Shown one piece after another: positions 28,906 through 50,881 of a stretch of DNA of 64,000 nt; the stretch's first letter is position 1, and every line of letters starts with the position of its first letter. The translations under genes were made by a program, and so were the position numbers. The stretch is taken from NCBI RefSeq assembly GCF_028768465.1, contig NZ_CP118225.1:992001-1056000 (forward strand). Reading direction: 5' to 3'. This DNA is from Rhodopirellula sp. P2. Lineage in GTDB: Bacteria > Planctomycetota > Planctomycetia > Pirellulales > Pirellulaceae. Below the pieces are notes generated by a model that was not told the origin of the DNA, ran no database searches, and saw only the letters and a list, made by a program, of their open reading frames with translations.

Positions 28906-30972
28906 ATGTTTGCACACGTGCGCCGTTGGTTCTTGTCGGGAAGTTGCATGGTTTTCGCGTTAGCTGGAATGTCCAGCGATTCACATGCTGATGAAGGCAT
29001 GTATTTGTTCAACGATGTTCCTCGCGAATTGCTGCGAGACCGGCATCAGTTCGAACCCTCTGATGAATGGCTGAAACACCTGCAGCTGTCGTCGGTGCGA
29101 TTCAACTCAGGCGGTTCTGGATCGTTCGTGTCCTCCAATGGTTTGGTGCTGACCAACCATCACGTCGCCAGTGACACGCTGGCGAAGCTCAGTTCCAAAG
29201 AGCGAAACCTGATCGACGATGGGTTCCTTGCAAAGAGTTTTGCCGAGGAACTCAAGGCACCTGATTTGGAACTCAATCAACTGATCTCGATCGAGGACGT
29301 GACCGAGCGAGTCAACCAGCAGATCACCGAGGCGGCAGACGCCGAAGAAGCTGCCAAACAACGGCGGGCTGTGATCGCGACGATCGAAAAAGAATCGCTC
29401 GATGAAACCGGTTTGCGAAGTGATGTGGTGACACTGTTCGGCGGAGCGAAGTACCACCTTTATCGCTACAAGAAGTACACGGACGTTCGATTGGTGTGGG
29501 CTCCTGAAACCGCGGCGGCATTCTTCGGTGGGGATGCAGATAACTTCGAGTACCCGCGTTACAACCTCGACGCGACGCTGATGCGAGTCTACGAGGATGG
29601 GGAACCAGCCAAGCTCGAACACTTCCTGCAGTGGAATGAACAACCTGCCCAAGCCGGCGACCTCGTTTTCGTCAGTGGGCACCCCGGGCGAACGCAGCGG
29701 ATCTTCACCGTCGAGGCTCTCGAGTACCTGCGTGACGAACGCTTGCCACACGTGTTGGACTTACTGCGTCGCAAAGAGGTGCTGCTTCAGCAGTACCGAT
29801 TGGAAAGCAAAGAAGCCGCCCGTCGCGGACGCGATGAGTTGTTCGGGATCCAAAACGCTCGCAAGGCTTACTCAGGCATGTTGGCGGGACTGCAAGACCC
29901 GCAAACGTTTGTGTCCAAACGAGGCCGCCAGGATCGGCTGCTGACGGAACTGGCAAACTCGCCGGAACACTCCGGGCTGGCCGACGCTTGGAAAGAAATC
30001 GCGGAAGTGCAATCGGAGAAGGCTGAGTTGCTTGACCGCTCGGTTTCGCTTCGCAGTGAGCTTTTTCAACTCGCTCTTCGCATTCTGATTCTGTCTGAAG
30101 AAGACCGCAAACCCAACGAAGAACGACTGCCGGGTTACACCGATTCGGGGCGAGAATCATTGATGGCTCAGATCCTTTCGCCAGCACCGATCTACGATGA
30201 TTTGGAAATGGTGAAATTGGCCGATGAGATTGCCTTGCTGCTGGAAAGCCGCGGCATGAACGATGCGGTTGTGCGAGAAGTCTTGGCCGGTCGTTCGCCC
30301 AAACAGATCGCCAGCGAACTGGTGAGCGAGACGAAGATCAAAGACGTGGAGACGCGAAAAGCATTGCTTGACGGTGGGTTGGATGCGGTCCTGGCTTCGG
30401 AGGATCCGATGATCCGGTTGGCCCGAGTGATCGCACCCGAGTATCGCCGGATCAATGAGATCAGCGAACAACTCGGCGAACGCGAAAAGCAAGCTTATGC
30501 GGAGATCACCCAAGCGACGACGGCGATCGAAGGAACGGGTGGGTATCCCGATGCGACCTTCACATTGCGTTTGGCGTTCGGGGTTGTGTCCGGGTACGAA
30601 GAACGAGGTGAGACGGTCCATCCCACGACGAACTTTGCAGGTGCTTTCACGCATGCGAAGGAGCACGAAGGACAAGAAGACTTTGACCTTCCCAAATCCT
30701 GGATGACTGCCAAAGACAACATTGATTTGGACACCCAGCTCAACTTTGTCTGCACCGCCGACATCATTGGTGGCAACAGTGGCTCACCCGTGGTGGATCG
30801 CGACGGGGCGTTGGTGGGACTGATTTTCGATGGCAACATTCAAAGTCTGACCAGTGACTATCTTTACACCGATGTACAGAGTCGAGCGGTGAGTGTGTCG
30901 GGCGTGGCCATTCCGGAAGCCCTGCGTTCGATCTACCAAGCCAATGCCTTGGCAGATCAGCTCGGCAACTGA
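28906..30972 (+). CDS. S46-family dipeptidyl peptidase (DPP7-like)
   Basis: A secreted or periplasmic serine exopeptidase that removes dipeptides from peptide N-termini. The 688 residues fit the family (about 700). Signal peptide to about residue 29 (ends SHADEG). Catalytic parts: LVLTNHH with His85/86, GGDADNFEYPRYNLD with the Asp near 210-220, and GGNSGSPVVD with the nucleophile Ser near 625. The FDGN motif after the Ser has Gly where DPP11 has Arg, so a preference for hydrophobic P1 residues (DPP7-like) is more likely than acidic ones. It stands alone between repeats. S46 peptidases are best known from Bacteroidota. Confidence 0.9.
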   Translation: MFAHVRRWFLSGSCMVFALAGMSSDSHADEGMYLFNDVPRELLRDRHQFEPSDEWLKHLQLSSVRFNSGGSGSFVSSNGLVLTNHHVASDTLAKLSSKERNLIDDGFLAKSFAEELKAPDLELNQLISIEDVTERVNQQITEAADAEEAAKQRRAVIATIEKESLDETGLRSDVVTLFGGAKYHLYRYKKYTDVRLVWAPETAAAFFGGDADNFEYPRYNLDATLMRVYEDGEPAKLEHFLQWNEQPAQAGDLVFVSGHPGRTQRIFTVEALEYLRDERLPHVLDLLRRKEVLLQQYRLESKEAARRGRDELFGIQNARKAYSGMLAGLQDPQTFVSKRGRQDRLLTELANSPEHSGLADAWKEIAEVQSEKAELLDRSVSLRSELFQLALRILILSEEDRKPNEERLPGYTDSGRESLMAQILSPAPIYDDLEMVKLADEIALLLESRGMNDAVVREVLAGRSPKQIASELVSETKIKDVETRKALLDGGLDAVLASEDPMIRLARVIAPEYRRINEISEQLGEREKQAYAEITQATTAIEGTGGYPDATFTLRLAFGVVSGYEERGETVHPTTNFAGAFTHAKEHEGQEDFDLPKSWMTAKDNIDLDTQLNFVCTADIIGGNSGSPVVDRDGALVGLIFDGNIQSLTSDYLYTDVQSRAVSVSGVAIPEALRSIYQANALADQLGN

Positions 30973-31321
30973 GACAACTTGGTAAGCAAGTAGGCCCGTC
31001 GTGCAGTTTTGAAGTGCCGTGCCAGTAACACGTTGAGAACCCCGCCCGACGAAGTTGGGAGGGGTCGGAAAGCGAGCGTTCAGCGAGCTTTCCGGGGGAG
31101 CGGCAATGTGCATCGATGTCTCTGCTCGCGTCCGCCTGAACGGCGTCGCTCTCCCCAAACTGTGTTTCAGGAGAGGTTGTTGTTGCATCGAGACCGCCAA
31201 AACGTTGCCGAGTGAATTCTGTGGTGTGGGAGCACAGAAAACTCAGCGAGAGCGGGCATTTTTATGAAAACATGGTGATTGCAGGTAACCTGGTCCAATC
31301 TGCTGCCATGTTCTTCATGAG
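30973..31321. other. Gap upstream of the ECF sigma operon
   Basis: 349 bases without a gene. It contains a GC-rich hairpin, GGAAAGC...GCTTTCC, at 31067-31093 next to CCCCGCCCGACGAAGTTGGG, and presumably the promoter of the sigma-factor operon nearest 31322. No promoter motif could be fixed. Confidence 0.5.
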
Positions 31322-31915
31322 ATGACCATGAACTCTTTCCCCGACGATCGGCGAGTGACAGATGCTTTGCGACGTATTTTACGTGGCGAGACAGCTGAAT
31401 TCGAGGTCGTTCTGCGCCGCTATGAGCAGCCGTTGCGGGCTTGGCTCGCGGCGCACGTGCCGCTGGGGATCGACGTGGATGAAATCGCCCAACGCAGCTT
31501 TGTGGCCGCGTTTTCGCGCTTGGAAGAGTTCGAGTTGGGGACTGATTTCGGGGCATGGTTGTTCACCATTGCACGCTACCAGCTGATGACAGAGAAGACG
31601 CGATTGCGACGAATCGCGGATTATCATGCTCGCTACGGCCCGGAGTTGCTGCAGCGAGAACTGGATCGCCGTTGCCAACAGTCCCCCGAGATCTGGTCGA
31701 CAAAAATCGAACACTTGGAGCGGTGCGTGGAATCGTTGGGTGAACACCTTGGTCGCTTTTTAAAGTGGCGTTACGACGAAGAAATCCCGCTTCAGGAAAT
31801 GGCCGATCGCAGCGGACGGTCCGTGCCTGCGGTCAAGAAACAACTCTGGAAGATCCGGGGAAAGTTGCAAGAGTGCATGGATGCAAGGCTCGCGAGCGAA
31901 GGAGGTTCGTCGTGA
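31322..31915 (+). CDS. ECF-type RNA polymerase sigma factor
   Basis: An extracytoplasmic-function sigma factor, 197 residues (or 195 from ATG 31328). Region 2 is at about 25-100 (VDEIAQRSFVAAFSRLEEFE, GAWLFTIARYQLMTEKTRLRR); region 4 is at about 145-190 (ESLGEHLGRFLKWRYDEEIP, MADRSGRSVPAVKKQLWKIR), a helix-turn-helix for -35 recognition. It resembles planctomycete-expanded ECF groups. Its stop overlaps the GTG start of the FecR-like gene (GTGA), and the next three genes also overlap. It therefore probably directs transcription of its own operon under control of the membrane protein that follows. Confidence 0.92.
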   Translation: MTMNSFPDDRRVTDALRRILRGETAEFEVVLRRYEQPLRAWLAAHVPLGIDVDEIAQRSFVAAFSRLEEFELGTDFGAWLFTIARYQLMTEKTRLRRIADYHARYGPELLQRELDRRCQQSPEIWSTKIEHLERCVESLGEHLGRFLKWRYDEEIPLQEMADRSGRSVPAVKKQLWKIRGKLQECMDARLASEGGSS

Positions 31916-33627
31916 ACGACCAGGAACGTTTTGCTGATTTGTGGACCGACTACCTCGAAGGTGAGTTGGACGAACGTGGGCTGAAAGAGCTGCATGAATT
32001 GCTCGCCAGTGACGAACGGTTTGTGCAGCGTGCTGCCGACTTGTTGCAAACACATCGATTGCTTGGCCTGGTGGTGGCGGACTCGCCGCCGCAACGGGAT
32101 GCGTTTGTCCGAGAGACGCTGGCTCAATTGCCGGAAAGCCAGGATGAGTTTGTCGCTCAGGTGATGTCGCAGGTGGGAGCTCGTCAAACCGACGTGGAAC
32201 CAGCCGGCAAAACGTCACCAAGGAGTCGTCCGGTTGCCTCCCACTTTGCTGTGGTGGTGGCTGCGTTGATCCTTGTTGTTGGCTCGTTGTTTGTCTTCCA
32301 GCCAAAGGGTCAAGCTCCCGTGACTGTTCAAGGGAAGTATCCCCCTGTCACAACGGTGGGCGTGCGTCACGCTCGGCTCGCCAGCAGTTCGCATGCGAAG
32401 TTCTTTGGTGAGCTGTCACCGCCGGTCAATGCCGTGCTCCCACCGTATCGAGAATACGTCCTGATGAGCGGTTTGATTGAAGTTTTGTTTCCGACCGGTG
32501 CCTCGGCAATTTTAGAAGGACCAGCGGTCTTTCATGTTTCGTCCGATGAGAGCTTGGATCTGAGTGTTGGTCGCTGTTCGGTTCATGTGCCCGAAGGGGC
32601 AGAGGGTTTTCACGTCAACACGCCAGTCACCCGTGTGGTGGATCGAGGGACTCGATTTTCGGTGAACGTCGACGAAATGAGTGAGACGGAAGTGCAAGTG
32701 ATCGAAGGCGCTGCTGATATCTACGACGTTGAGCGAGTGGTCGACGCTTCCGATTCAGGCTCTCCCAATGCCATTGAATTGTTGGAACGATTGGCGGGCG
32801 GAGAAGCCAAAAAATACGTGTCCGCAGGTCTTGTTGCGACCGAGCAGGTCCCCTTCCGGGCGACTTCCTACCGCAGCCAATTGCCTGACCGCGTCGTTTC
32901 GTATGAGACAACCTTCGCTGTGGACGGAGGAGCCGAACACTTGACCAGCGTGACCGTCCAACGTGGCGGCAAAGTCAATCGGTTTCCGGTGGACTCATTG
33001 ATTCCTGCGCGACTGACTTGGTTCCAAGCGACCGAGCCTCGACCGTTTTTGTGTGGTGAGCCGACGTACCCATCGTCCCGAGTGGAAGCGTTGTTGGACG
33101 AAAGCCTCGTCACGGGAGTGATCAATCCCGATGGGAGTGTCGATCCACTGACAACCGATCCCGTTCTCGAAGGTGATTCCGGAACGCCCGGGATGGCAAT
33201 TCGTTTTGACCAACCGGTCGTGAATGGTCCCGGAGCGGATGTGCTGGTGTTCGATTTGCAAACGTTCGGCAACCCGCTTGATGGCGATGCATTTCACATC
33301 AGCCCGCTGAAGTTTCGCGAAGGACTGAAGTCCTACACGATTCGAAAGTATGACCTGACGATGGAATCGCCTGAAGCAAAAGTGTTGACAGATTTCCATG
33401 TCCACTTTTTTGCGGAACCTGCGAAGTCACTTGCGGAACTCAATTCGCTTAAGATGACACCGCGACAACAAAGCAATAAGTTTCGTGGTCTGGCCGTTGG
33501 GATTGATCTCTCTGACTTGGGATATGCAAGCGGTGAGACAATCGAAGGACTCTTTATTCAGGACGCGCTCGACGACAGTCACTTTGTCGACCCTGTCTTC
33601 ATCGCTGGCCTGCCAGAGGAAGAATGA
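31912..33627 (+). CDS. FecR-like membrane regulator of the ECF sigma factor
   Basis: A 571-residue single-pass membrane protein. The N-terminal ~100 residues (VNDQERFADLWTDYLEGELD...) look like a cytoplasmic anti-sigma region made of helices. One helix spans about 103-125 (FAVVVAALILVVGSLFVF). Residues about 180-270 are a FecR domain (LFPTGASAILEGPAVFHV, TPVTRVVDRGTRFSV). Residues 290-571 are not recognised and may be a ligand-binding beta-sandwich. The GTG start has GGAGG six bases upstream and overlaps the sigma stop; its own stop overlaps the next gene (ATGA). It probably senses an outside signal and releases the sigma factor. Confidence 0.85.
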   Translation: MNDQERFADLWTDYLEGELDERGLKELHELLASDERFVQRAADLLQTHRLLGLVVADSPPQRDAFVRETLAQLPESQDEFVAQVMSQVGARQTDVEPAGKTSPRSRPVASHFAVVVAALILVVGSLFVFQPKGQAPVTVQGKYPPVTTVGVRHARLASSSHAKFFGELSPPVNAVLPPYREYVLMSGLIEVLFPTGASAILEGPAVFHVSSDESLDLSVGRCSVHVPEGAEGFHVNTPVTRVVDRGTRFSVNVDEMSETEVQVIEGAADIYDVERVVDASDSGSPNAIELLERLAGGEAKKYVSAGLVATEQVPFRATSYRSQLPDRVVSYETTFAVDGGAEHLTSVTVQRGGKVNRFPVDSLIPARLTWFQATEPRPFLCGEPTYPSSRVEALLDESLVTGVINPDGSVDPLTTDPVLEGDSGTPGMAIRFDQPVVNGPGADVLVFDLQTFGNPLDGDAFHISPLKFREGLKSYTIRKYDLTMESPEAKVLTDFHVHFFAEPAKSLAELNSLKMTPRQQSNKFRGLAVGIDLSDLGYASGETIEGLFIQDALDDSHFVDPVFIAGLPEEE

Positions 33628-36600
33628 AAATGCAATTTTCCGGACAACGTCATCTTCGATCGACCAGCAACTTGATGCGTCTGCTCGCTGGATTGGAATG
33701 GTCAGCCGTTCTTGTCGCAGTGATGTTCCTGGCGTGGGAACTTCCAGTCGCTGCCGGGGAACCGTCGATCGCAACACGGGATCAGTTCGAACAACACGTT
33801 CGGCCGATGCTGCTGTCCAATTGCATCAAATGTCATGATGACAACAAACAAGAGGGTGGCCTGAACCTGACCACCCTGGAAGGTCTGCTGCGCGGAGGCG
33901 ACACCGGGCCGGCAATCGTTCCCGGGAATCCTGAGGAAAGCTTGCTGCTCGAGGCACTGCGTTACGAATCGTTCGAAATGCCTCCCAGCGGTCCGCTTGA
34001 AGATTCGATGGTGGAGGGCATTGCCGCCTGGGTGGCCGCTGGGGCTGACTGGCCGAACGGTCTGCAGCTGAAGAAAATCTCAAAGATCGACGAGCACGAT
34101 CGCGACTGGTGGTGCTTTCAACCCGTGGGGGATCCGTCCGTTCCCGAAGTGGACGACAAGGGTTGGTGCCGCAACGAAATCGATCACTTTGTCTTTCGAC
34201 GTTTATCTCAAGACAACGTCCAACCTGCTTCGGAAGCCGAACCCCAAAAGCTTGCCCGGCGTGTTCACTTTTCACTCACAGGATTGCCTCCTGATGATGA
34301 AACAGCCTGGTTGATACAGAGTGAGGAAGGTTGGTACGACACGCTTGTCGATCAATTGTTGGAAGGTTCTGCCTACGGAGAGAATCAGGCGAGGTACTGG
34401 TTGGATCTTGTTCGGTACGCCGATTCGGACGGATACAACGCGGATCACTCTCGTCCAGAGGCCCACCATTATCGCGACTATGTGATTCGTTCGTTCAACG
34501 AAGACAAGTCGTATGATCGGTTTGTGATGGAGCAACTTGCGGGGGATGAAGTTGATCCGGGGAACAAAGATGCCCTGATCGGCACGATGTTCTTGCGACA
34601 CTGGATTTACGAATACAACCAACGGGATGTCGAGGGGCAATGGGCGCAAATCCTCAATGACGTCACCGAAACGACCGCCGATGTGTTCCTTGCACAAGGT
34701 CTTAAATGCGCCCGCTGCCACGATCACAAGTTTGATCCATTGTTGCAGCGAGACTACTACGCTCTTCGATCGTTCTTTACACCACTGCTTCCTCGCGAAG
34801 ATCAGCCAATTGGTGATGTTGAAACTCGCGCCAAACACTTTGAACAACAAAAGGTTTGGGAAGAAGCGACCGCGGACATTCGCCAACGCCTGTACGAAAT
34901 CGAAAGGCTCGTGCTGCTCCAAAAAGCGGGAGGGCAGGGGTTCAAGATGTTCACGAAGGAACTCCAAGCTCTCGCGGCCAGTCGACGTCACGAAATCACT
35001 CCTTACGAGTACCAGATTGTGTCGTTGATGATGCGTCAATTGGTTTTGAACCCTGAAAAGCTGCCCGAATGGTTGGATGGGGAGCAGGAAGTTGAACGTC
35101 AAAAGCGACTGAAAGAGCTGGCCGAATTCGATCACTTGAAGCCGGAACCGCTTCCGACCATGAAGTTCGTCGCCAGCGATGTCGGGCCGGAGGCACCCCC
35201 AACATTCATTCCTGATTTGAATGATGACAGTCCCATTGAGCCTGCCTTCCCAATCGTTCTGGAAGACGAACCGCCACAGATTCAACCTCCTCATGAAGCA
35301 CTGCAATCAACCGGGCGACGAACTGCCTTGGCCAACTGGATCGCTTGCGAAGACAATCCTGTGACGGCCCGCGTGATGGTCAATCGCGTTTGGCAACAAC
35401 ACTTCGGCCGCGGCCTGGTAGAAAACACCAGTGACTTTGGACATCTCGGAACGCCTCCCTCGCACCCGGAACTGCTCGATTGGTTGGCCCGTCGCTTCAT
35501 GGATGACGGTTGGAGCTTGAAAAAACTGCATCGATTGATCCTGACGTCAGCGACCTACCGTCAATCCTCCGAGCGGCCGATGGACGATCAACTGGCGACG
35601 CTTGACCCACAGAACGTCCTTCTTTGGCGGCAAAATCCACGGCGACTCTTCGGGGAGGAAATTCACGATTGTCTGATGACGGCGAGCGGTGAAATGGGGC
35701 CGGGGAAACGAGCGATCTACAAGAATGTCAAACGCAACGCCTTGGACCCACTGTTGGCCGTGTTTGATTTTCCGGACCGGGTTGAGAGTCGAGGCAAGCG
35801 ACATCGAACGACCACGTCGCCCCAATCCTTGCTGATGATGAACAACCCGTGGATGCACGATCGTTCCAAGAACCTTCTGAAGAATGCAGGTTCGATGAGT
35901 CTCGATTCGCTGGTGGAGGAAGTCTATCAGCGTCTCTACTTCCGAAAACCGAGTCCGGAAGAATTGGCATTGGCCTCCGCGTTTGTGGAGTCTTACGAAG
36001 CCAATGTGAAGATCTCTGAACCACCGAGTTTGCTTGCGTCGATGCCGAGCGGTGAGTCCGCGATCCAGCTCAATCCGAAGAAACCGGTGTCCATTCAGGT
36101 GTCGCCGATTGAAGAGTTGCTCGATCCGGACACCACGGGTGACTTGACCATCGAGGCCACCGTGATGTTGGACTCGCTGTACCCGGACGCTTCGGTTCGA
36201 ACGATCATCACGGGCTGGTCAGGCAACAACTCCCAACGCGGTTGGTCGCTCGGGGTGACCTCCACCAAGAGTGGGTATCAACCTCGCAATTTGATTTTGC
36301 AATTGGTCGGTTCACGCACTGACCAGGACAGCAAACCAGAATACGAAGTGATCGCGTCCAATCTGCGGCTGGAATTGAATCGACCGTACTACATCGCAGT
36401 GTCAATTGATCTGGACGACCCTTCGAAAGAAGGCATCACGTTCTATCTGAAGGACCTGTCGAAACCAGATGCCAAACCCGAAGTAGCCCATGTCGCTCAC
36501 AAAGCTCGTTGGAAGGTGCAAGCCAATCGAGCGATTGAGATTGGTGGTCGTTCAACCCATCACCTTTGGGATGGGTTGATTCAAAATGTTCGTTTGCATC

Positions 36601-36819
36601 AGCGAGTACTCAGCCAAGACGACTTGTTCGGCGAACAGCGGAATTCGTCGCAGCTGTTGTTTGATATCGAGTTCACAGACGTCGAAAAATTGGGTCAGGA
36701 TCAATCAGGGCAACAGCACCATGCCTTGGTGACCGATCGAGAAATGGCCTCGGCTTCTCCTGCGATGCAAGCCCGCATTGCACTGATGCACGCACTCCTT
36801 TGCTCCAATGAGGTGATTT

Positions 36820-36830
<11 letters not shown>
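33624..36830 (+). CDS. PSCyt1 heme / DUF1549 / DUF1553 protein with C-terminal LamG-like domain
   Basis: A 1068-residue exported protein of the planctomycete-specific cytochrome set. An N-terminal hydrophobic segment (about 23-45) precedes PSCyt1 with CIKCH (Cys67, Cys70, His71). DUF1549 spans about 155-375 and ends at a second CXXCH, CARCHDHKFDP. DUF1553 spans about 560-800 (NRVWQQHFGRGLVENTSDFG, LHRLILTSATYRQSS). The last ~230 residues resemble a LamG/concanavalin fold (TIEATVMLDSLYPD, NVRLHQRVLS). Heme attachment outside the membrane and glycan binding are inferred; the biochemical role is unknown. It is the third gene of the sigma operon, with an ATGA start overlap, and overlaps the DUF1501 gene by 11 bases. 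Confidence 0.88.
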
Positions 36831-38252
<1,422 letters not shown>

Positions 38253-38256
<4 letters not shown>

Positions 38257-41200
38257 AATTTGCCACGCCAATATTTTTTGTCGTGTTCGCTTTGATCGTG
38301 GCGAGCCCATCGCAGGCCCAGACGGACCTTGGAACGCGTGCGGTCACACGCTGGGATTTCGGAACCGAAGCGACAGCTCCGTTGACCCTGCACGGGAACA
38401 TCATGCGTGATCAGGCTGGCCCTCGTCCGCCTGAATTCCCTGAGATGGCAGCCAACAACACGGCTGTCAAACTCGATGCCGGAGCGTATCTGTCGGTTTC
38501 CGATCCCGGGCCCAAAAGCGATTTCGATTTCCAGAACGGTGACGCAATCACGCTGGAAGCCTGGGTCAACCCGAGCGACATTCGCGACGGCCAGCCGCAA
38601 TACGTCATGGGAAAAGGCCGCACAGGTTCGCCGAAATTTGCCCGCGATAATCAGAACTGGGCGTTTCGAATCATGGGCAAGGAGGGGGAGGCGCGTGTCA
38701 ACTTTCTGTTTGCGACCAAGCTCACGGGCAATGGTCAGCACTGGCATCGCTGGACCTCCAAAGCCGGTTTCCCGGTTTCCACGGGATGGCACCACATCGC
38801 CGTCACCTATGAATTTGGAAAACCAGAAACGATCCGCGGTTGGGTCAATGGGCAGCCGACCGATGGCACCTGGGACATGGGCGGACCGACCCACGAAACG
38901 CCCGTGGTGGATGATGACGAAGTGCGTATCGGCGAACGCTTCTCGGGCATGTTGGACGCGGTCGCGATCCACCGCACCGTTTTGGATGACAAAACATTGG
39001 CCGCCCGCTTCAACCGCGTGGGAAAAGAACGTGTGGTGAGGCTGGCCCCCGAAGCGATGCCCGATCTCGGAGAGATCCCGGAAGGCCAGGTCTTGTTCCA
39101 GATCAGTGAACACATGCCGGCGGGAAATCGTTGGTTGCACGAGAGTGAATCGTGGCCAACAGAGACGACTCGCTGGTGGGGCGATTCGTTCTTACTTTCG
39201 CGAATTCCGGTCCGATACGATGACTGGGGGATTCGTTCGAGTTGGAACGCACCGATGTTGCTTCGCATCGCAGGAGACGTTGAACTTCCCGCGGGCAAAC
39301 ACCGAATTCTGATGCGTGACCGTTCACTCGGTCGATTGTGGATCGATGGCGCATTGGTCGCTCGCACCAAAACCGTTCGCAGTCGCGGTGGGAATTTGGA
39401 ACCGATCGTGCCGGTCCCGGATCCGCTGGTCCCCCACGCTCGACTGCTGCCGTTCCCGCAACAGGAAGCGTTCACGGAATTTGAAGTCAAAGCGGATTCT
39501 TCCAGCGACACAAAACGTGTGCGAGTCGTCCTGGAACTGCTGGTTGGTGGCAATGGCGATCGAACGGAATCGGGTGAGGTTTGCGTGGCGATGCAGCCAT
39601 CCGGTGAAGGACCGCTGTATGTGCTCAAGCCAGATGCTTCATCACCTTTGGAGTTAACCGACGCGGCGGTTGAACCGGAACTTCGTCGGTTCGAAGCTGC
39701 GCTGGTCGCTTTCGAAGATGCCACGCGTCGCGAAGCTGCCAAGTCACAAAATGCGTTTTGGGAACAACGGCACCAAATCGCTAAGAAGGCTGTCCAAGAA
39801 AAACTGTCTCCCGGTGAGAGTTCCGATGGGCACCCCGTCGATCAATTCATCGCTGACAAAATCGCTCGCGCACTCGACCAAGCGGCCGAGATCGATGAGG
39901 ACACAACGGAGCACTTTCATCGTCATGTTCTGCCGATCCTTTCTGAGCAGTGTTTTCGTTGTCATGGTGAGAAGGCACAGGGCGGTTTGCGTTTGAATTC
40001 TCGCGAGCATGCACTCTCGATGGGTGATTCGGAAATGGCTGCGGTGGTTCCGGGTGATCCGGACGCCAGTGAGATGATGGTGCGAATTCACTCCGGTGAC
40101 ATGCCACCAACCGAAACGGGTTTGTCTGACGAGGAGATTGCGACGTTGGAGAACTGGATCGAAGGCGGAGCCGTTTGGCCTCATCCTCCGATCCCTTCCG
40201 AAGCGATCGCGGATGCTCCCGTCGGTGACGACGCAGCGTTCCTGCGACGTGTCTATCTCGACACGGTCGGAACCGTACCGACCGAAGCGGAGGCTCGCGA
40301 ATTTCTGGACTGCGATGATCCTGAGAAGCGAGCGGACTTGATTGATCAACTCTTGCACGACGAGCGTTACGCCGACAATTGGGTGAGTTTGTGGCTGGAT
40401 TTGTTGGCTGAGAACCCCACCCTGCTGAATCAGTCACTCAACTCAACCGGACCGTTTCGTTGGTTCTTGTATGAGTCACTGCGAGATGGCAAACCGCTGG
40501 ATCAAATGGTGACGGAGTTGATCCTGATGCGAGGAAGCTCACGCGAGGGAGGAAGTGCGGGCTTTGGATTGGCGGGTGAGAACGATTCACCGATGGCCGC
40601 GAAAGGTCACGTTGTGGCGTCGGCATTCCTCGGCATTGAACTGCAATGCGCTCGCTGTCATGACTCACCGTATCACAGCACCTCGCAGGAAGACTTGTAT
40701 TCACTGGCCGCGATGTTGAATCGCAAACAGCTCACACCGCCGAAAACGAGCCGTGTTCCCGATGCATTCTTTGAAGGCATTGGCCGTGAGTCATTGATTC
40801 AGGTGACTTTGAAACCAGGTCAACAGGTTCAACCGAAATGGCCCTTCGCCTCGTTCACCGGGGTGGAAGATGGTCCACATATCGACGCCCTCGTTCGCGA
40901 CCCAAAAGACTCACGCGAACGTTTGGCGGCGTTGGTGACTTCCCCGCAGAATCACCGTTTTCCTCAAGTGGTCGTCAACCATCTTTGGAATCGCCTGATG
41001 GGGGCTGGCATCGTCCAGCCTGTCAATGATTGGGAAGGCAAAACGCCCAGCCATCCGGAACTGCTGGCTTGGTTGGCCGATGAGTTGGTTGCCAACCACT
41101 ATGATGTGCGGCATGTCTTGCAGTTGATCATGACCTCCCAGACCTATCAGCGGGAAGCCATTGGTCAGAACCAATTGGCCTCGGCGGAGCAACGATTCTT

Positions 41201-41939
41201 CAACGCTCCCGATCCAAGACGATTGACGGCGGAACAGGTCGTTGACTCATTGTTCACCGCAACCGGCAGTGAAATCGATACCGGAGAGTTGACATTCACA
41301 CATGACGGGGCGGAGCCCATGACGACCAGATTGACACTTGGATTTCCTCGTCGTGCCTGGATGTTTGCCGGACTGAATAACGAACGCGACCGACCCAGTC
41401 TCGCGTTGCCACGTGCTCAGCCGATCGCCGATGTTCTGGAAGCGTTTGGATGGACCGGTACGAGACAGCAACCGATTGCCGATCGTGAGTCCGATCCCAA
41501 TTTGCTGCAACCTGGTATCCTCGCCAACGGCACGTTGTCGATGACTCTGACACGAGCGGCCCATCAGAGTGAATTGGCGCGGTTGGCAATGGACGCGAAA
41601 TCGCCCGAAGCGTTATTGGATTCGTTGTTCCTTCGATTCTTCGCTCGCTATCCGAGTTCACAAGAAAAGTCGGATCTCTTGCCGGTGTTAGCGTCTCGAT
41701 TCAAGGAACGCGAAATGCCAGCTGATCAAGTGCAGCCTCCGCCTGTGGACAGCCCGTTGCCAGTCTCCACCTGGACGAATCACTTGGTTCCCGAAGCGAA
41801 TGAAATTCAAAAGGAATGGCAACGTCGGGTCATTCGTGGTCCCGCCCCGGATCCAAAACTCCGGCCAGAGTGGCGGGAGGTTTATGAAGACATCGTTTGG
41901 AGTCTGGTGAACGATCGTCAGTTTGTCTGGATCCCCTGA
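38253..41939 (+). CDS. LamG-like / PSCyt1 heme / DUF1549 / DUF1553 protein, sigma operon
   Basis: A 1228-residue secreted protein with signal peptide [22 protein letters not shown]. An N-terminal LamG-like domain spans about 60-250 ([23 protein letters not shown]). A middle beta-rich region (~270-420) follows, then PSCyt1 with CFRCHGEK at about 566, DUF1549 (~660-850, with [11 protein letters not shown]) and DUF1553 (~900-1180). Compared with the protein at 33624, the sugar-binding-like domain is at the opposite end. It is the fifth and last operon gene, starting by ATGA overlap. A palindromic repeat follows at 41978. It is probably surface-exposed and glycan-binding. Confidence 0.88.
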
Positions 41940-41977
41940 CGACAGAACGCAACCCGCATCGGCCTGTTGATTGAGTG

Positions 41978-42029
41978 ACCCGGCGCGTGAGCGAGGAATT
42001 CGATGGGGTCCCTCGCTCACGCGTCGGGT
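41978..42029. repeat. Palindromic repeat after the sigma operon
   Basis: ACCCGGCGCGTGAGCGAGG and CCTCGCTCACGCGTCGGGT, 19-base arms with one mismatch and a 14-base centre. It could end transcription of the operon, but no T-run follows. Confidence 0.8.
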
Positions 42030-42125
42030 TATGATATTCATGTCAACACTCAATCGACAGAACGTAACGTGTCGGGTCACTCAAGTAGAAAACAACTCCC
42101 CACCAATCCTTCCCCAGGATGAAAC

Positions 42126-43415
42126 ATGAGTAATTCCACGCGACGACAGTTTCTTGCCAGCAGTGTCGCTGCCGCCGGCGCCGTCAGTCTGCCTCGAATC
42201 GCGACCGCGCATGGTTCGGCGGAACGATTGCAAGGGAAAGCCGAGCATGTGATTTCGATCTGGCTCGGGGGCGGAATGGGCCAGATTGATACGTTCGATC
42301 CCAAGGCCAAGGGAGACCCCAAAGCGAAAAGACCCGGAGGCTACTACGATCTGATCGACACTGCCGTCGAAGGGGTTCAGGTTTGTGAGCACCTCTCACA
42401 AACGGCCAAAGTGATGGACCGCGTCACAGCGGTTCGGACCGTGAATCACGATGTCATTGATGAGCACGCCGCCGCAACGAACCGGATGCACACCGGTCGC
42501 GCGATCAGTGGCACGGTCACCTATCCTTCGCTGGGATCCTTGGTGGCGCATGAGCGGGGTCCCGTCAACGAAGACGCACCTCCCTACGTGCTGATCGGCT
42601 ATCCCAATGTGACTCGTGGTCCTGGTTTTCTGGGCTCGAAACATGGTTACCTGTACCTCACTGAAACCGGACGTGCCCCCGCTGGCTTGTCACGTCCCGA
42701 TGGCATTTCCAATGACCGTCAAACACGCCGCGAGCAGTTCCTTGCCACGCTGAAAAACAGTCGAGGGGACAGCAAAATCTCGAAGTTCTTGGACTATGAG
42801 TCGGCGATTGAACAGAGCATGAAGTTGAGTGGTCCAGACTTCACACGCGTCTTTCAGCTTGATGGCGAGCCGGATGACCTGCGGAACCGCTATGGGGGTG
42901 AGTTCGGTCAACGCTGTTTGTTGAGTCGTCGGCTGGTTGAGAGTGGTGTGCGGTTCATCGAAGTCAGCCACAACCTGAATTTTTTGAATGGAGCGGGTTG
43001 GGATGTCCACAACAGTGGAATCGTCAATCAACACAAGCTGATCCAGGAGCTGGACACCGCTGTTTCAACTTTGATCATGGACCTCGAAGCCAAGAAGTTG
43101 CTCGACAAGACGTTGATTGTGATCACGTCCGAATTCGGTCGTCCACCGGAGTTTGACAGTGGTGGAGGTCGCGGTCACCAAGGTTCCGCCTTCAGTTGTG
43201 TGCTTGCGGGCGGTGGGTTGGCTCACTGTGGTGCTTATGGTGAAACCGATCATCTTGCCAAGAAGATTGTCTCCCAACCGGTCGGCGTTCCCGACTTCTT
43301 CGCCACGATTTGTGCTGCCGTTGGAATTGATTACAGCAAGAATCTCTACGCCGGTGACCGACCGGTTCCATTGACCGATCAGGGCCAACCGATCCGCGAA
43401 TTGTTCGCGTCCTGA
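42126..43415 (+). CDS. DUF1501 protein, stand-alone
   Basis: A 429-residue exported DUF1501 protein with a Tat-like signal ([19 protein letters not shown]). The alkaline phosphatase-like metal motifs are altered: [20 protein letters not shown] near the start and [20 protein letters not shown] near the end. It lacks an adjacent DUF1549/DUF1553 gene; instead a DapA-family gene follows 151 bases later. The ATG at 42126 has AGGA eight bases upstream. It is more distant from the other three DUF1501 proteins here, judging by motif differences. The substrate is unknown. Confidence 0.88.
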
Positions 43416-43566
43416 TAGAGCACCGCGAACGTTGTGACAATCGACCCGCGACGAACCCGGATGGACTGGATGTTCGATCAGCCGGTGGCACGCGATCTGA
43501 ACCCTGTCTGACAGGAGACGGCAGATTTCGGCGAGACAAAACAGTAGGCCCTCAAGAGCAACTTCG

Positions 43567-44520
43567 ATGCAATTTGATCCCACAGGCGTCATTCCTGCTT
43601 GTTTGATGCCGTTCGATTCCGATCTGGAAATCGACGAACCTGCCTATCGCCGTCACCTGAGCGATCTGGCCGGCGTCGAGGGAATCACCGCCATCACGGT
43701 CAACGGACACGCTGCCGAGGTTCACGCTCTGAGCTTCGCTGAGCAGCAACGCGGCATTGAGATCGCGCACGATGAACTTGCTGGAAAGCTGCCGTTGGTC
43801 GCCGGCATTCATACCGGCAACACCCGTGAAGCGGCTTCCCTGGCCAAGATGGCCTCCGCCGCCGGAGCGGCAGCACTGCTGGTGTTTCCCTCCGAGGTGC
43901 TGACCTTGGGCGGCCAGCAGAAACCGGAATGTGCCCGAGCCCACTTGAATGCGATCGCCGAGTCGACCGAGCTGCCCTTGATTTTGTTTCAGTACCCCAT
44001 TTCGGGAGGGCTTGGCTATCCGCTGGACAACCTGCTCCAGCTCTGCAGCGAATTCCCTTCGATCCGGGCGATCAAGGATTGGTGCAACGATCCCGCTCTG
44101 CACGAGCGTCACATTCGCGAATTGCACGCCTTGGACCGTCCGGTGAAGGTGCTTTCCACGCACAGCATGTGGTTGCTCAGTTCCCTGGTGCTGGGTTGTG
44201 ACGGATTGCTGTCGGGCGCCGGCAGCGTCATCGCCAATCTGCAAGTCGCCCTGTTCCAAGCCGTGCAGAGGAACGACCTGCAAGCAGCCCGCTCCATCAA
44301 CGATCGGATTTACCCAACCGTCCGTGCCTTTTACTCGGATCCTTTGCTCGACATGCACAACCGCATGAAGGAGGCGCTCGTGTTGCTGGGACGACTCGAT
44401 GCCGCCCATGTGCGACCCCCGCTGATGAAACTCAAGCCATCTGAAACGGAGCGGATCGGCTCGCTCCTGGCCGAGGCCGGGATCACTCCTTCCACGATCT
44501 ACCAAAACGAAATTTCCTAG
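43567..44520 (+). CDS. Dihydrodipicolinate synthase / N-acetylneuraminate lyase family aldolase
   Basis: A cytoplasmic class I aldolase of the DapA superfamily, 317 residues. The catalytic Schiff-base Lys170 is in SIRAIKDW and Tyr143 in LFQYP. The usual GTTGE motif is replaced by VNGHAAE, so the substrate probably differs from aspartate semialdehyde; pyruvate is likely one partner, with sugar-acid or hydroxyproline-type substrates possible. That makes true dapA unlikely. It follows a DUF1501 gene by 151 bases and is followed by an inverted-repeat element. Confidence 0.87.
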   Translation: MQFDPTGVIPACLMPFDSDLEIDEPAYRRHLSDLAGVEGITAITVNGHAAEVHALSFAEQQRGIEIAHDELAGKLPLVAGIHTGNTREAASLAKMASAAGAAALLVFPSEVLTLGGQQKPECARAHLNAIAESTELPLILFQYPISGGLGYPLDNLLQLCSEFPSIRAIKDWCNDPALHERHIRELHALDRPVKVLSTHSMWLLSSLVLGCDGLLSGAGSVIANLQVALFQAVQRNDLQAARSINDRIYPTVRAFYSDPLLDMHNRMKEALVLLGRLDAAHVRPPLMKLKPSETERIGSLLAEAGITPSTIYQNEIS

Positions 44521-44761
44521 CAGCCTGTTGATTGATACGTTTCGCAGATTTAGCGATCAGCCGATGGGTGTTCGCCCACGGTCACCTCAGACGAACCGGA
44601 CGCTATCGCGTTCCGACTGACTAAACCGGAACGCAGATGTCATCGGGTATGTGAGCCGCTTGGCGTTCGCCACGGTTCCCGCACTCAACCGGGGTGAACG
44701 CCAAACGGCTCACAGGATTCGACCCAATCATTTCTGCGTACCTGCTTAAATCAACAGGCTG
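44521..44761. mobile_element. MITE-like element with 13-bp terminal inverted repeats
   Basis: CAGCCTGTTGATT at 44521-44533 and its exact complement AATCAACAGGCTG at 44749-44761 bound a 241-base gene-free unit. Inside is a palindrome, GTGAGCCGCTTGGCGTT...GAACGCCAAACGGCTCAC (44651-44713), shared with the element at 54723. It begins at the base after the aldolase stop. Confidence 0.7.
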
Positions 44762-44780
44762 CAAGTCGTTGTCCAGCAAA

Positions 44781-44842
44781 ACAGACCCAGCCGGGAACAC
44801 TGGGTTCTGAAACAGACCCAGCCGGGAACACTGGGTTCTGAA
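44781..44842. repeat. 31-bp tandem repeat, two copies
   Basis: ACAGACCCAGCCGGGAACAC..., 31 bases, occurs twice without gap; each copy holds CCCAG...CTGGG. It completes the 363-base gap 44521-44883, which has no gene. Confidence 0.85.
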
Positions 44843-44883
44843 AGAAGATCAGCCTTCCCTTTCCCCAAACGAGAGCCGAAAGA

Positions 44884-47862
44884 TTGTTGTTGCCAGAAGC
44901 AAACCGACAGGCGATTTGGTGGATGCTGTTGTTGATTTGGGTCGCAAGCGGCCTCTCGCTTGGTAAAGCGGAGGCTGGCGATCCGTTTGAACAGCAAATC
45001 GCTCCGCTGCTGGCTCGGCGGTGCCTGTCTTGTCATGCGGGCGAGGCGGCCAAAGGAGGGTTCTCGGTGCAAGACTCCGCGGCGTTTTTTGCCGACGGAT
45101 TTGTCGAACCAGGTGATTCCGCGGCGAGTCATTTGCTGGATTTAATTTCACCGGAATCGGGCAAGGCGGAGATGCCCAAGGATGCGGATCCATTGACCGC
45201 AGCGGAGATCGATGCGATTGCGAAATGGATCGACCAAGGTGCGACTTGGCCCGATGGATTCGTGGTGGAAGAAGCCTTGGTCGACAACTTCGATTGGTGG
45301 TCGTTTCAGCCGATCTCACGGCCCTCGGTTCCTCAGTTGGATGATCCCTGGGCACGATCGCCAATCGACCAATTTGTACTTCGGACTCTGAAGAACAAGG
45401 GACTCACCTATTCGCCACGTGCGGATCGCAGGACATTGATCCGACGCCTGACTTACGATCTGATCGGGTTGCCTCCCACGCCAGCGGAAGTCGCTCGCTA
45501 CGTGAGCGATCCCGATTCGGACGAGCAGGCTTATGAAAAACTGGTGGATCGGTTGCTGGAATCAGAACACTACGGGGAGCGATGGGCGCGGCATTGGTTG
45601 GACGTCGCCAAATACGCCGATTCCAATGGCTACGACAAGGACAAACTGCGTCCCAATGCATGGCCCTATCGCGACTATGTGATTCGATCTTTCAATGAAG
45701 ACAAACCGTACGCGAGATTTGTCCAGGAGCAGATCGCGGGGGATGTGTTGTTTCCAGGAACCGCTGATGGCACGCTGGGATTAGGTTTTATCGCCGCCGG
45801 TCCCTGGGACTTCATCGGTCATGTGGAAGTGCCGGAATCCAAGCTGGATGGCAAAGTGGCCCGCAACCTTGATCGTGACGACATGGTCTCGGGGGCGTTC
45901 AATGCGTTCTGCAGCATGACGGTCCAGTGTGCGCGGTGCCACAATCACAAATTTGATCCGATCACGCAGCAGCAATACTACGGCATGCAAGCGGTCTTCG
46001 CCGCAGTCGGTCGTGCCGATCGACTGTTTGATGCGGATCCGAACGTCGCTCAACGACGCGAGCCATGGCGAGATCAGCTGTCCAAGGCCAGGGCTCAGCA
46101 GAAGAGTGTTGAAGACAAGGTTGCAGCGGCAGGGGGCACCGAGTTGGCCGAACTGACGGCACAGATCAACACGCTGAACAAAAGCTTGAAGCCGATCAAG
46201 GTGACGGAGCATGGTTACCACAGCGAGATCGCTGCCACGGAGAACTCTGGAAAATGGGTGGAAGTGAAACTGAAGTCGGAAGTGCATGTATCGCGAATCG
46301 TGCTGCATGCTTGCGAAGACGACTTCAACAGGATCGGCGCAGGTTTCGGATTTCCAAAGCGATTCAAAGTTGAGTTGTTTGATGACGCTGGCAAGCGGAC
46401 CATCATCCACGATGCTCGCGAAGTTGACTTTCCCAATCCAGGATTGGTGCCAGTTGAGTTTGCGGTCGAGAACCAACCGGTTCGTCGCGTTCGGGTCACG
46501 GCGACTCGGCTCGCCGAACGCAAATCCGATTTCAACTTTGCACTCGCGGAACTGCGAGTCTTTTCCGGTGACCGGAATGTCGCGATTGGCGCAACGGTCG
46601 ATTCACTTGATTCGATCGAAGCCCCCGTGCGTTGGCGTCGTCAGAATTTGACGGACGACAAATGGCCGCGCATCGGAGACCCGGAGGCAACCCGCCGGAT
46701 CGCGGAAGCAACCCAGAAGCGGGATGCAATCCTTGCCGCGGTGACCACTCCCGAACTTGTCGCGCGACGCAGCGATGCGAAGCAGAAGATTGCCGAGGCA
46801 GAGTCTCAGTTGTCATCGCTGCCACCGCAGCAAACCGTGTATGCGGCGGCGACCCATTTTTCAAGCCAAGGAAATTTCAAGCCGACCGAGGGCAAGCCAA
46901 GAGAGGTGTTTGTGCTCCATCGCGGGGAGGTTTCGCTGCCGGGTGACCCTGCGGTGCCCGGTGTGATGCCTTTGTCCAGCGACTCTCAGTGGCAATTTGA
47001 TGCGAGCCTCAATGAAGCGGAGCGTCGAGCGAAGTTGGCCACTTGGTTGACCGATCGCGAACATCCCTTGGTTTGGCGTTCGATTGTGAACCGCGTTTGG
47101 CAGTACCACTTTGGTCAGGGAATCGTTGCCACACCCAATGACTTTGGTCGCATGGGTGCTGAACCGACCCATTCCGAACTGCTCGATTGGTTGGCGGTCG
47201 AGTTTCGCGACGGGGGTCAATCGATGAAGACCTTGCACCGGATGATCGTCACCAGCAACACGTATCAACAGACCGCGGCAGACAATCCGGCCAATTCCGC
47301 GATCGACGGCAGCAATCAATTTTTGTGGCGATCCAATCGACGTCGGCTTTCGGCGGAAGAGCTTCGCGATTCCATTCTCTCGGTCAGTGGATCGCTGGAC
47401 ACAACGATGGGTGGCCCGGGCTTCTATCTGTTTGCCTTGGCAAAGACGGAGCATTCACCTCACTTTGAGTATCACCGATTTGATCCGACTGACAAACGAT
47501 CACACCGCCGCAGCATCTATCGGTTCATCGCTCGGTCGCAACCGAATCCCTTTCTGACGACGCTCGATTGTGCCGACTCATCGCAGAGCACCCCCCGTCG
47601 CAATGAAACGCTGACCTCGTTGCAAGCGCTTTCGTTGATGAACAACAAGTTCAATTTGGTGATGGCCGAAGCGTTTGCAAAGCGACTTGAATCGGAGAGC
47701 GACAATCTGCCCGATCAAGTCGAACGTGCGATGCGATTGCTTTGCCAACGAGTTTCGACACCGGCCGAACGTGATGAATTGGTCGCCTACGCTGATGTCC
47801 ATGGTCTGGAGAATCTATGCCGGATCTTATTCAACCTGACCGAATTCGTGTTTGTGGATTGA
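44884..47862 (+). CDS. PSCyt1 heme / DUF1549 / DUF1553 protein with an internal discoidin-like domain
   Basis: A 992-residue exported protein. The signal is in WWMLLLIWVASGLSLGKAEA. PSCyt1 has CLSCH at about 47; DUF1549 (~155-370) ends with CARCHNHKFDP at about 349. Residues about 440-560 resemble an F5/8 type C (discoidin) sugar-binding domain (ENSGKWVEVKLKS, FNFALAELRVFSG). DUF1553 spans about 700-975 (NRVWQYHFGQGIVATPNDFG). The open frame begins with TTG at 44884; ATG 44923, just before the signal core, is equally plausible. It is paired with the DUF1501 gene eight bases downstream. It is probably surface-located; function unknown. Confidence 0.87.
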   Translation: MLLPEANRQAIWWMLLLIWVASGLSLGKAEAGDPFEQQIAPLLARRCLSCHAGEAAKGGFSVQDSAAFFADGFVEPGDSAASHLLDLISPESGKAEMPKDADPLTAAEIDAIAKWIDQGATWPDGFVVEEALVDNFDWWSFQPISRPSVPQLDDPWARSPIDQFVLRTLKNKGLTYSPRADRRTLIRRLTYDLIGLPPTPAEVARYVSDPDSDEQAYEKLVDRLLESEHYGERWARHWLDVAKYADSNGYDKDKLRPNAWPYRDYVIRSFNEDKPYARFVQEQIAGDVLFPGTADGTLGLGFIAAGPWDFIGHVEVPESKLDGKVARNLDRDDMVSGAFNAFCSMTVQCARCHNHKFDPITQQQYYGMQAVFAAVGRADRLFDADPNVAQRREPWRDQLSKARAQQKSVEDKVAAAGGTELAELTAQINTLNKSLKPIKVTEHGYHSEIAATENSGKWVEVKLKSEVHVSRIVLHACEDDFNRIGAGFGFPKRFKVELFDDAGKRTIIHDAREVDFPNPGLVPVEFAVENQPVRRVRVTATRLAERKSDFNFALAELRVFSGDRNVAIGATVDSLDSIEAPVRWRRQNLTDDKWPRIGDPEATRRIAEATQKRDAILAAVTTPELVARRSDAKQKIAEAESQLSSLPPQQTVYAAATHFSSQGNFKPTEGKPREVFVLHRGEVSLPGDPAVPGVMPLSSDSQWQFDASLNEAERRAKLATWLTDREHPLVWRSIVNRVWQYHFGQGIVATPNDFGRMGAEPTHSELLDWLAVEFRDGGQSMKTLHRMIVTSNTYQQTAADNPANSAIDGSNQFLWRSNRRRLSAEELRDSILSVSGSLDTTMGGPGFYLFALAKTEHSPHFEYHRFDPTDKRSHRRSIYRFIARSQPNPFLTTLDCADSSQSTPRRNETLTSLQALSLMNNKFNLVMAEAFAKRLESESDNLPDQVERAMRLLCQRVSTPAERDELVAYADVHGLENLCRILFNLTEFVFVD

Positions 47863-47870
47863 ACGTTCCA

Positions 47871-49313: not shown

Positions 49314-49322
49314 GTTCGCTGA

Positions 49323-50645: not shown

Positions 50646-50881
50646 GCTGTTCTTTTGCAGCGAAAGCGAGGTTTGAAACGTTTTCGAACCAACGCGACGC
50701 GTCCATGCGTAGGGGTACAGTGTCGACAGGTCGGCCGCCAGTGCGGTGATCCAGGCTGTCAAGGTGTCAGATGACGGATGAACTCAGAAAGTTCCCAAAT
50801 TAACTTCAAATCGATCCGTCAGGGGGATCCGTCATCGACCGCGAGACCATTTTAGGGGCCAATCGAAAGGCTTATCAGCGG

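What the first reader, a model, noticed from the sequence alone, without database searches (positions are those of the whole stretch)
31322..41939. Self-regulated ECF sigma / FecR / DUF1553 / DUF1501 / DUF1553 operon
Five plus-strand genes overlap at every junction (GTGA, ATGA, 11 bases, ATGA). They link an ECF sigma factor and a FecR-like transmembrane regulator to two large heme/DUF1549/DUF1553 proteins and one DUF1501 protein. The two large proteins carry LamG-like domains at opposite ends (C-terminal in one, N-terminal in the other). FecR systems classically couple sensing of an outside substrate to production of its uptake machinery, so this may be a planctomycete counterpart: a glycan-sensing, redox-linked surface system without TonB receptors. 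The substrate and chemistry are unknown.
Basis: partly seen in the sequence, partly recalled or inferred. Interest (0 to 1): 0.7.

Follow-up and report, generated by a model that had tools for sequence, protein, structure and literature searches.

The report
Self-switching operon for periplasmic cytochrome enzymes
A planctomycete bacterium carries a gene switch, apparently with its own private on-signal, beside two pairs of exported, heme-carrying proteins that may work on sugars outside the inner membrane; the arrangement is real and recurs in relatives, but it belongs to a kind already glimpsed in print and its chemistry is still unknown.

Summary
The five overlapping genes are real. They are better read as a regulator plus two pairs: ECF, FecR, [P3+DUF1501a], [P5+DUF1501b]; DUF1501b (42126-43415) lies outside the given coordinates. 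The same six genes in the same order occur in five other loci of Rhodopirellula/Stieleria-type bacteria. P5-DUF1501b is the durable unit (68 of 80 P5 loci); the regulator is optional. New here: a promoter-like motif, GGTAACCT-N12-TGCCAT (31284-31309), stands before the ECF gene in 8 of 16 such cassettes (the other 8 share a different element) and occurs exactly once in this 7.29-Mb genome. This supports a self-activating switch with a private target. Of ten ECF genes of this type here, 7 have a PSD1/PSD2 cytochrome gene within 8 kb downstream (0.3 expected) and two others have different cytochrome c genes. No TonB receptor was found. Glycan processing is plausible (LamG, PA14-like domains) but unproven; a neighbour census showed no sulfatase enrichment. 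An ECF-PSD1 link in R. baltica was already proposed (PMC2754498, passages). Real, mostly a known kind, function open.

The parts
31284..31309 (+). ECF-type promoter-like motif GGTAACCT-N12-TGCCAT, ending 12 bases before the ECF start codon
   Evidence: Present before the ECF gene in 8 of the 16 ECF-FecR-P5 cassettes seen, window included (scan of all loci); aligned; one exact match in the own genome, none with 1 mismatch, 36 with 2 against 38 for the reversed control
31322..31915 (+). ECF sigma factor, 197 aa, close to TIGR02989 (Rhodopirellula/Verrucomicrobium family)
   Evidence: 118.5 bits, cut-off 124.55
31912..33627 (+). FecR-family membrane regulator, 571 aa: N-terminal segment, one predicted TM before the FecR domain, and a conserved C-terminal domain without Pfam match
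   Evidence: N-terminal part weakly like anti-sigma-W RsiW, E 0.011
33624..36830 (+). P3: leader peptide, PSCyt1, PSCyt2 (DUF1549), PSD1 (DUF1553), weak C-terminal LamG
36820..38256 (+). DUF1501a, twin arginine near the N-terminus, alkaline-phosphatase/sulfatase superfamily fold; partner of P3
38253..41939 (+). P5: leader peptide, N-terminal LamG, PA14-like domain, PSCyt1, PSCyt2, PSD1
41977..42030 (.). Dispersed palindromic (REP-like) repeat between P5 and DUF1501b, strong RNA hairpin
42126..43415 (+). DUF1501b, twin arginine near the N-terminus; partner of P5
   Evidence: a DUF1501 gene follows P5 on the same strand in 68 of 80 relatives' loci
43567..44520 (+). DHDPS-family lyase/dehydratase; relatives of it lie downstream of P5-DUF1501b in five other loci (L119, L120, L122, L126, L127) but in none of L199-L278; operon membership uncertain

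Best explanation
It is a self-amplifying, dedicated ECF sigma/anti-sigma switch controlling two cytochrome-enzyme pairs. At rest the FecR-family membrane protein would hold the ECF factor. A ligand (most likely a carbohydrate, read by the outer C-terminal domain) or the redox state of the periplasmic cytochromes releases it. The ECF factor then drives a promoter found only in front of its own gene, so sigma, FecR and structural genes rise together. The products are two exported di-heme proteins (P3, P5; Sec-type leaders), each paired with a DUF1501 protein with a twin-arginine leader and the alkaline-phosphatase/sulfatase fold. Lectin-like domains would hold a glycan or glycoside while the PSCyt2-PSD1 part, with DUF1501, carries out an oxidative or hydrolytic step that passes electrons to heme c. 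Shown by sequence or model: gene order, domains, predicted fold of DUF1501, heme and twin-Arg motifs, the conserved and (in this genome) single motif, repeated association of this ECF type with cytochrome genes. Inferred: sequestration, inducer, promoter activity, co-transcription, reaction and substrate.
For: Overlapping genes. Motif before the ECF start, single in the genome; the eight other ECF-FecR-P5 cassettes share GCGAGAAT instead (8 of 8). Ten ECF genes of this type in the genome (TIGR02989 at 118 bits or more; this limit was set so as to include the window's own, 9 pass the curated cut-off): 7 have PSD1/PSD2 within 8 kb downstream on the same strand (random mean 0.32, maximum 3 in 5000), 6 of 9 without the window's; of 26 other sigma hits 1 has (mean 0.72). 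Of the other three, two have cytochrome c plus DUF6797 proteins, one with a glucose/sorbosone-dehydrogenase match over its cut-off, the other with an SGL match just below its cut-off; one is divergent from a PSD1-DUF1501 pair. In six other genomes 24 of 99 such ECF genes have a listed PSD1 gene downstream (random mean 1.6, maximum 7 in 2000; 150 of 243 PSD1 hits were listed). LamG is C-terminal in 4 of 7 paralogous FecR-like proteins scanned. DUF1501 model: choline sulfatase and sulfamidase, E about 1e-7. P5 model: PA14-like match, E 8.4e-4. In one paralogous locus a FecR-like N-terminus and TM are fused to PSCyt1-PSCyt2-PSD1 right after such an ECF gene (profile built without it: E 1.3e-10).
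Against: No expression, binding or enzyme data. Many P5-DUF1501b pairs in relatives have no sigma/FecR upstream. The six-genome association is uneven: 1 of 14 in G121 and 1 of 18 in G024. No sulfatase enrichment beside the pairs; genes after P5-DUF1501b are diverse. In DUF1501 the sulfatase motif [CS]x[PA]xR occurs in only 8 of 88 sequences and Asp at position 69 in 5 of 88, so hydrolase activity is doubtful. The helical PSCyt2-PSD1 part has no convincing structural match. The fusion was found in 1 of 25 homologues. The palindrome at 41977-42030 may separate DUF1501b from the operon.
Confidence: 0.5

Rival explanations
1. Envelope or redox stress module: the same switch, but the signal is stress (oxidative, salinity, temperature) and the cytochrome pairs serve protection or electron disposal rather than use of a glycan.
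For: In R. baltica the ECF gene RB10049, which Studholme et al. linked to the PSD1 protein RB10051, is up-regulated under heat, cold and salt (passage of PMC2754498). AhpC-TSA family matches in 2 of 31 genes that follow P5-DUF1501b.
Against: Lectin-like domains on P5 and, weakly, P3, and on four paralogous FecR proteins, fit a carbohydrate better. Whether RB10049 is the orthologue of this ECF gene was not tested.
Confidence: 0.2
2. Hydrolytic module: DUF1501 is an active phosphatase/sulfatase-like hydrolase and the PSD1 protein is a binding or electron-dumping partner; the main chemistry is de-esterification of a sulfated or phosphorylated polymer.
For: DUF1501 model matches sulfatases; D340 and H342 in 88 of 88, E383 and H398 in 87 of 88 (one gap), which could bind metal.
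Against: The sulfatase DHG element aligns with EFG in DUF1501 (hhalign probability 74%); sulfatase signature in 8 of 88 and D69 in 5 of 88.
Confidence: 0.2
3. A true FecI/FecR/FecA-like system for iron or another TonB-dependent nutrient.
For: FecR domain over Pfam's cut-off.
Against: No PF00593 receptor found in the genome; the ECF scores 24 against the FecI equivalog cut-off of 260; the neighbours are cytochrome proteins.
Confidence: 0.03
4. Mere neighbours: the regulator genes sit beside cytochrome pairs without regulating them.
For: P5-DUF1501b occurs without them in many relatives.
Against: 4-base overlaps, same six-gene order in five other loci, association far over chance in this genome and six others taken together.
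Confidence: 0.07

Closest known systems
Planctomycete-specific cytochrome families PSCyt1/PSCyt2/PSD1 with neighbour family (Studholme et al., seen only as cited in passages of PMC2754498; He et al. 2017, PMC5615132, passages)
   Same: Same domains, pairing with a neighbouring unknown family, LamG/PA14-type modules, and an ECF gene proposed as regulator of a PSD1 protein in R. baltica
   Different: The passages seen do not describe a FecR partner, two pairs under one switch, or a private promoter; the original papers could not be read
FecI/FecR/FecA signalling
   Same: ECF factor plus membrane FecR protein encoded together
   Different: No TonB receptor found in the genome, ECF outside the FecI equivalog, exported cytochromes as neighbours
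Clostridial SigI/RsgI biomass sensing (search listing and starts of abstracts only)
   Same: Works alike if the reading holds: membrane anti-sigma factors that read polysaccharides, several such switches in one genome
   Different: Other sigma and anti-sigma families (recalled); membership not claimed
Alkaline-phosphatase/sulfatase superfamily
   Same: Predicted fold of DUF1501
   Different: Sulfatase signature and DHG element not kept

Membership tests
PSCyt/PSD1-DUF1501 pairs | PSCyt1, PSCyt2 and PSD1 in one protein | tested here: met
   P3 and P5 over the Pfam cut-offs for all three
PSCyt/PSD1-DUF1501 pairs | adjacent DUF1501 gene | tested here: met
   P3 and P5 are each followed by DUF1501; 38 of 41 PSD1 genes in the genome are adjacent to one (one corrected by hand)
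TIGR02989 ECF subfamily | score over 124.55 bits | tested here: not met
   118.5 bits, though matched over its full length; called 'TIGR02989-type' here, not a member
FecI/FecR/FecA systems | FecR family membrane regulator | tested here: met
   PF04773 31.7 bits, cut-off 24; hydrophobic TM segment
FecI/FecR/FecA systems | FecI-type ECF factor | tested here: not met
   NF041727 24 bits, cut-off 260
FecI/FecR/FecA systems | TonB-dependent transducer | tested here: not met
   PF00593: 0 hits in the genome; E. coli, Caulobacter and Bacteroides controls positive
Sulfatases (S1) | superfamily fold | tested here: met
   Foldseek E 1.2e-7 on the model
Sulfatases (S1) | [CS]x[PA]xR formylglycine signature | tested here: not met
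   8 of 88 sequences anywhere in residues 41-260; the window's own four were not told apart in that count
Class I c-type cytochromes | CxxCH plus distal Met | tested here: met
   C567, C570, H571 and M617-P618 in 70 of 70 P5 homologues; profile matches cytochromes c
ECF autoregulation | promoter recognised by its own sigma factor | not testable with these tools
   Only a conserved motif, single in the genome, is shown
SigI/RsgI | SigI-type sigma and RsgI N-terminal domain | not tested
   resemblance of mode of action only, recalled and listing

The most novel reading that the evidence does not exclude
Planctomycetes carry a set of about ten private ECF/anti-sigma switches per genome, each with its own promoter word and each dedicated to one periplasmic cytochrome c enzyme, and the anti-sigma factor reads the enzyme's substrate or its electron flow directly. 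In the extreme form, present in this genome, the anti-sigma factor and the cytochrome enzyme are one polypeptide, so the enzyme itself is the sensor.
Probability: 0.2. Interest if true: 0.7.

Novelty: new member of a known kind. Interest (0 to 1): 0.45.

Why it matters
PSCyt/PSD1 and DUF1501 proteins are very numerous in planctomycetes (41 PSD1 hits in this genome alone), and the papers I could search give them no known function (PMC5615132 says nothing is known). A cassette with its own switch and a single predicted promoter gives a direct handle: the growth condition that fires this promoter would point to the substrate or stress, and the same logic can be repeated for the sister cassettes.

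Tried and rejected
Substrate from neighbours: Pfam tallies of 48 genes adjacent to pairs and of 48 genes more than 4.5 kb from any pair in the same fetched stretches (48 drawn at random from 230) gave sulfatase 3 and 6, no enrichment; the distant set is not a whole-genome sample. Genes after P5-DUF1501b (31 of 32 scanned) gave DHDPS 3, GDSL 3, and FAA hydrolase, PLD and AhpC-TSA 2 each, the rest single; genes before P5 (31 of 33 scanned) gave nothing consistent. The window's DHDPS protein has no relative in L199-L278 at E 1e-3. Widespread anti-sigma/PSD1 fusion: rejected, 24 of 25 homologues (E 1e-150 or better, 146 genomes) show no such segment. The first E-value for that fusion (2.7e-8) came from a profile that may have included it; repeated without it, E is 1.3e-10 with a profile of nine FecR-like paralogues and 0.0026 with a profile of the 16 FecR relatives of A4. 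A larger regulon for the motif: not found; the eight genomes were chosen because they have the motif at the ECF gene, and hold 11 exact matches, of which one extra lies before a DUF1559 gene next to the cassette in G078 and two inside reading frames; reversed control 0. Upstream regions of the nine other ECF genes of this type show no such motif. Sigma-70 promoters and intrinsic terminators in 30900-49500 are not above shuffles. The helical half of P5 gave no structural lead. Script counts corrected by hand: one search gives 35 of 41 PSD1 genes followed by DUF1501 and 3 preceded (one of them both); gene 3725925 was mis-assigned to an overlapping ORF (one search shows PSD1 then DUF1501), so 36 followed and 38 adjacent; not adjacent: 3160348, 3377997, 4874119. 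For PSD2, 13 of 17 were covered; 10 counted as followed by DUF1552, one more mis-assigned in the same way, two preceded by it. One search counted 60 downstream DUF1501 partners with too strict an overlap limit; one search repeats it with a wider limit (68). In one search one of 27 weaker sigma hits (second piece of one gene) was left out; the length of G024 was taken as 6.6 Mb. Starts: in L111 and L250 the ORF has an earlier start codon upstream of the motif; I used the start after the motif.

Literature limits: Jogler 2012, the ECF classification paper of 2021 and a guessed DOI for Studholme 2004 are not held, so 'not described before' is not claimed for the gene order. Papers were seen only as listings or passages.
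Full report
What is there. The window lies in a complete 7.29-Mb genome (G000:C1:992001-1056000).

The unit is larger. P5 has its own DUF1501 partner, at 42126-43415. In the window's genome 38 of 41 PSD1 genes are adjacent to a DUF1501 gene, and 13 of 13 covered PSD2 genes (of 17) to a DUF1552 gene (corrected as told). So the cassette reads as a regulator plus two pairs, P3 with DUF1501a and P5 with DUF1501b. P3 and P5 share 24-35% identity in their common parts, DUF1501a and b 30%.

Conservation of the whole. Judged by their upstream sequences these form two groups of close relatives, so they are not five independent cases. ECF-FecR stands upstream of P5, without P3 and DUF1501a between, in ten more of the 40 loci. 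In the 80 loci, 48 had at least 8 kb upstream of P5; 4 had ECF and FecR there; a few others have an ECF gene nearby in another arrangement. Three loci of the two sets are the same contigs (L209/L100, L215/L104, L269/L124). The regulator looks like an add-on to the enzyme pairs; no tree was built to date it.

The switch. Sixteen ECF-FecR-P5 cassettes were seen, the window's included. A scan of the window and 180 loci (L099-L278) for the motif finds it before the ECF gene in eight: window, L099, L111, L125, L205, L207, L208, L250. These align on GGTAACCT-N12-TGCCAT, identical in all eight apart from the spacer, ending 9-12 bases before the start codon used. The other eight (L113, L115-L120, L122) share GCGAGAAT instead, so promoter words seem to differ between two sets. 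In the whole genome the first motif has one exact match, none with one mismatch, and 36 with two mismatches against 38 for the reversed pattern. In eight genomes chosen because they have it, a slightly looser form has 11 exact matches, eight of them at this ECF gene, and none for the reversed control; one of the other three lies before a DUF1559 gene beside the cassette in G078, two inside reading frames. The spacing fits ECF promoters (recalled). This is the strongest new evidence for a self-regulated switch with a private target; promoter activity itself is not shown.

The wider pattern. Ten ECF genes of the TIGR02989 type (118 bits or more, a limit set to include the window's; nine pass the curated cut-off) exist in the genome. 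Seven have PSD1 or PSD2 within 8 kb downstream on the same strand, six of nine without the window's; random placement gives 0.32 on average, 3 at most in 5000; for 26 other sigma hits it is 1 against 0.72. Two of the remaining three have a FecR or FecR-like gene and, further down, a protein with cytochrome c and DUF6797, one with a GSDH match over its cut-off, the other with an SGL match just under it; the last is divergent from a PSD1-DUF1501 pair. In six further single-contig genomes 24 of 99 such ECF genes have a listed PSD1 gene downstream (random 1.6, at most 7 in 2000); only 150 of 243 PSD1 hits were listed, and the rate runs from 1 of 18 to 8 of 18 per genome. Four of seven FecR-like paralogues scanned end in a LamG domain. 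The FecR protein of the cassette has instead a C-terminal domain conserved in the 16 aligned sequences and without a Pfam match at E 0.001.

What the products may do. P3 and P5 have Sec-type leaders by eye. In 70 of 70 aligned P5 homologues both CxxCH sites and the Met-Pro of a class I cytochrome are invariant. The AlphaFold2 model of P5 265-1228 (pLDDT 90.4) gives a PA14-like carbohydrate-binding match (E 8.4e-4; the region is inferred to be the strand-rich first 190 residues of the model) and nothing at E 0.001 for the helical PSCyt2-PSD1 part. DUF1501a (pLDDT 85.1) has the alkaline-phosphatase/sulfatase fold. All 88 aligned DUF1501 sequences carry a twin arginine near the N-terminus, so Tat export is likely. 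D340 and H342 are invariant and E383 and H398 present in 87 of 88, but the sulfatase signature and DHG element are not kept. An oxidative or redox-assisted step on a carbohydrate is my best guess, supported by the lectin-like domains and by a sugar-dehydrogenase-like protein in a sister cassette; it is not supported by the neighbour census.

A fusion at the window's edge. On the minus strand, a protein reaching from 62322 beyond the window's end (genome 1054322-1057993) begins with a segment like the N-termini of the FecR-like paralogues, TM included (residues 5-109, E 1.3e-10 with a profile built without it; 0.0026 with the more distant A4 profile), then PSCyt1-PSCyt2-PSD1; its ATG overlaps the stop of an ECF gene of the same type. 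It is the only one of 25 homologues with this N-terminus. It shows that in this lineage an anti-sigma-like module and a cytochrome enzyme can be one polypeptide.

Comparison with print. Passages of PMC2754498 state that Studholme et al. proposed ECF RB10049 as regulator of RB10051, a PSD1/PSC2 protein of R. baltica, and that this ECF gene is up-regulated under heat, cold and salt. [quoted passage not shown] I therefore file the cassette as a new member of a known kind; the promoter motif, the two-pair reading and the fusion are additions found here, and I could not check them against the unheld papers. It works somewhat like FecR or SigI/RsgI switches but fails membership of FecI/FecR/FecA on the ECF type and the TonB receptor.

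Noticed in passing
window 62322-64000 (-), continuing to G000:C1:1057993; L143:10822-14493: FecR-like N-terminus and TM fused to PSCyt1-PSCyt2-PSD1, overlapping an ECF gene of the TIGR02989 type by 4 bases; followed by DUF1501 at about 60762-62252 (-).
   Followed up: partly
window 41977-42030: Palindromic repeat; one arm (CCTCGCTCACGCGTCGGGTT) has 127 matches in the genome at up to 2 mismatches, reversed control 0; the whole gap folds with z -7.6. It may cut or stabilise the transcript before DUF1501b.
   Followed up: partly
window 44884-49313: A third PSD1-DUF1501 pair follows the cassette, about 360 bases after the DHDPS gene.
   Followed up: no
window 49326-50762 (-): A 479-aa protein with a TM and a FecR-N-terminus-like segment (33.9 bits, E 6.4e-9), no Pfam family; no ECF gene seen beside it.
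   Followed up: no
L141:9954-13232, L144:9762-12947: Sister cassettes carry cytochrome c + DUF6797 proteins with SGL/GSDH-like regions in place of PSD1.
   Followed up: partly
L126, L101, L099: In relatives, genes after P5-DUF1501b include FAA hydrolase, HpaI aldolase and DHDPS together (L126), an acetylesterase-like protein (L101) and a sulfatase (L099).
   Followed up: partly
window 28906-30972: Peptidase S46 gene just upstream of the cassette.
   Followed up: no
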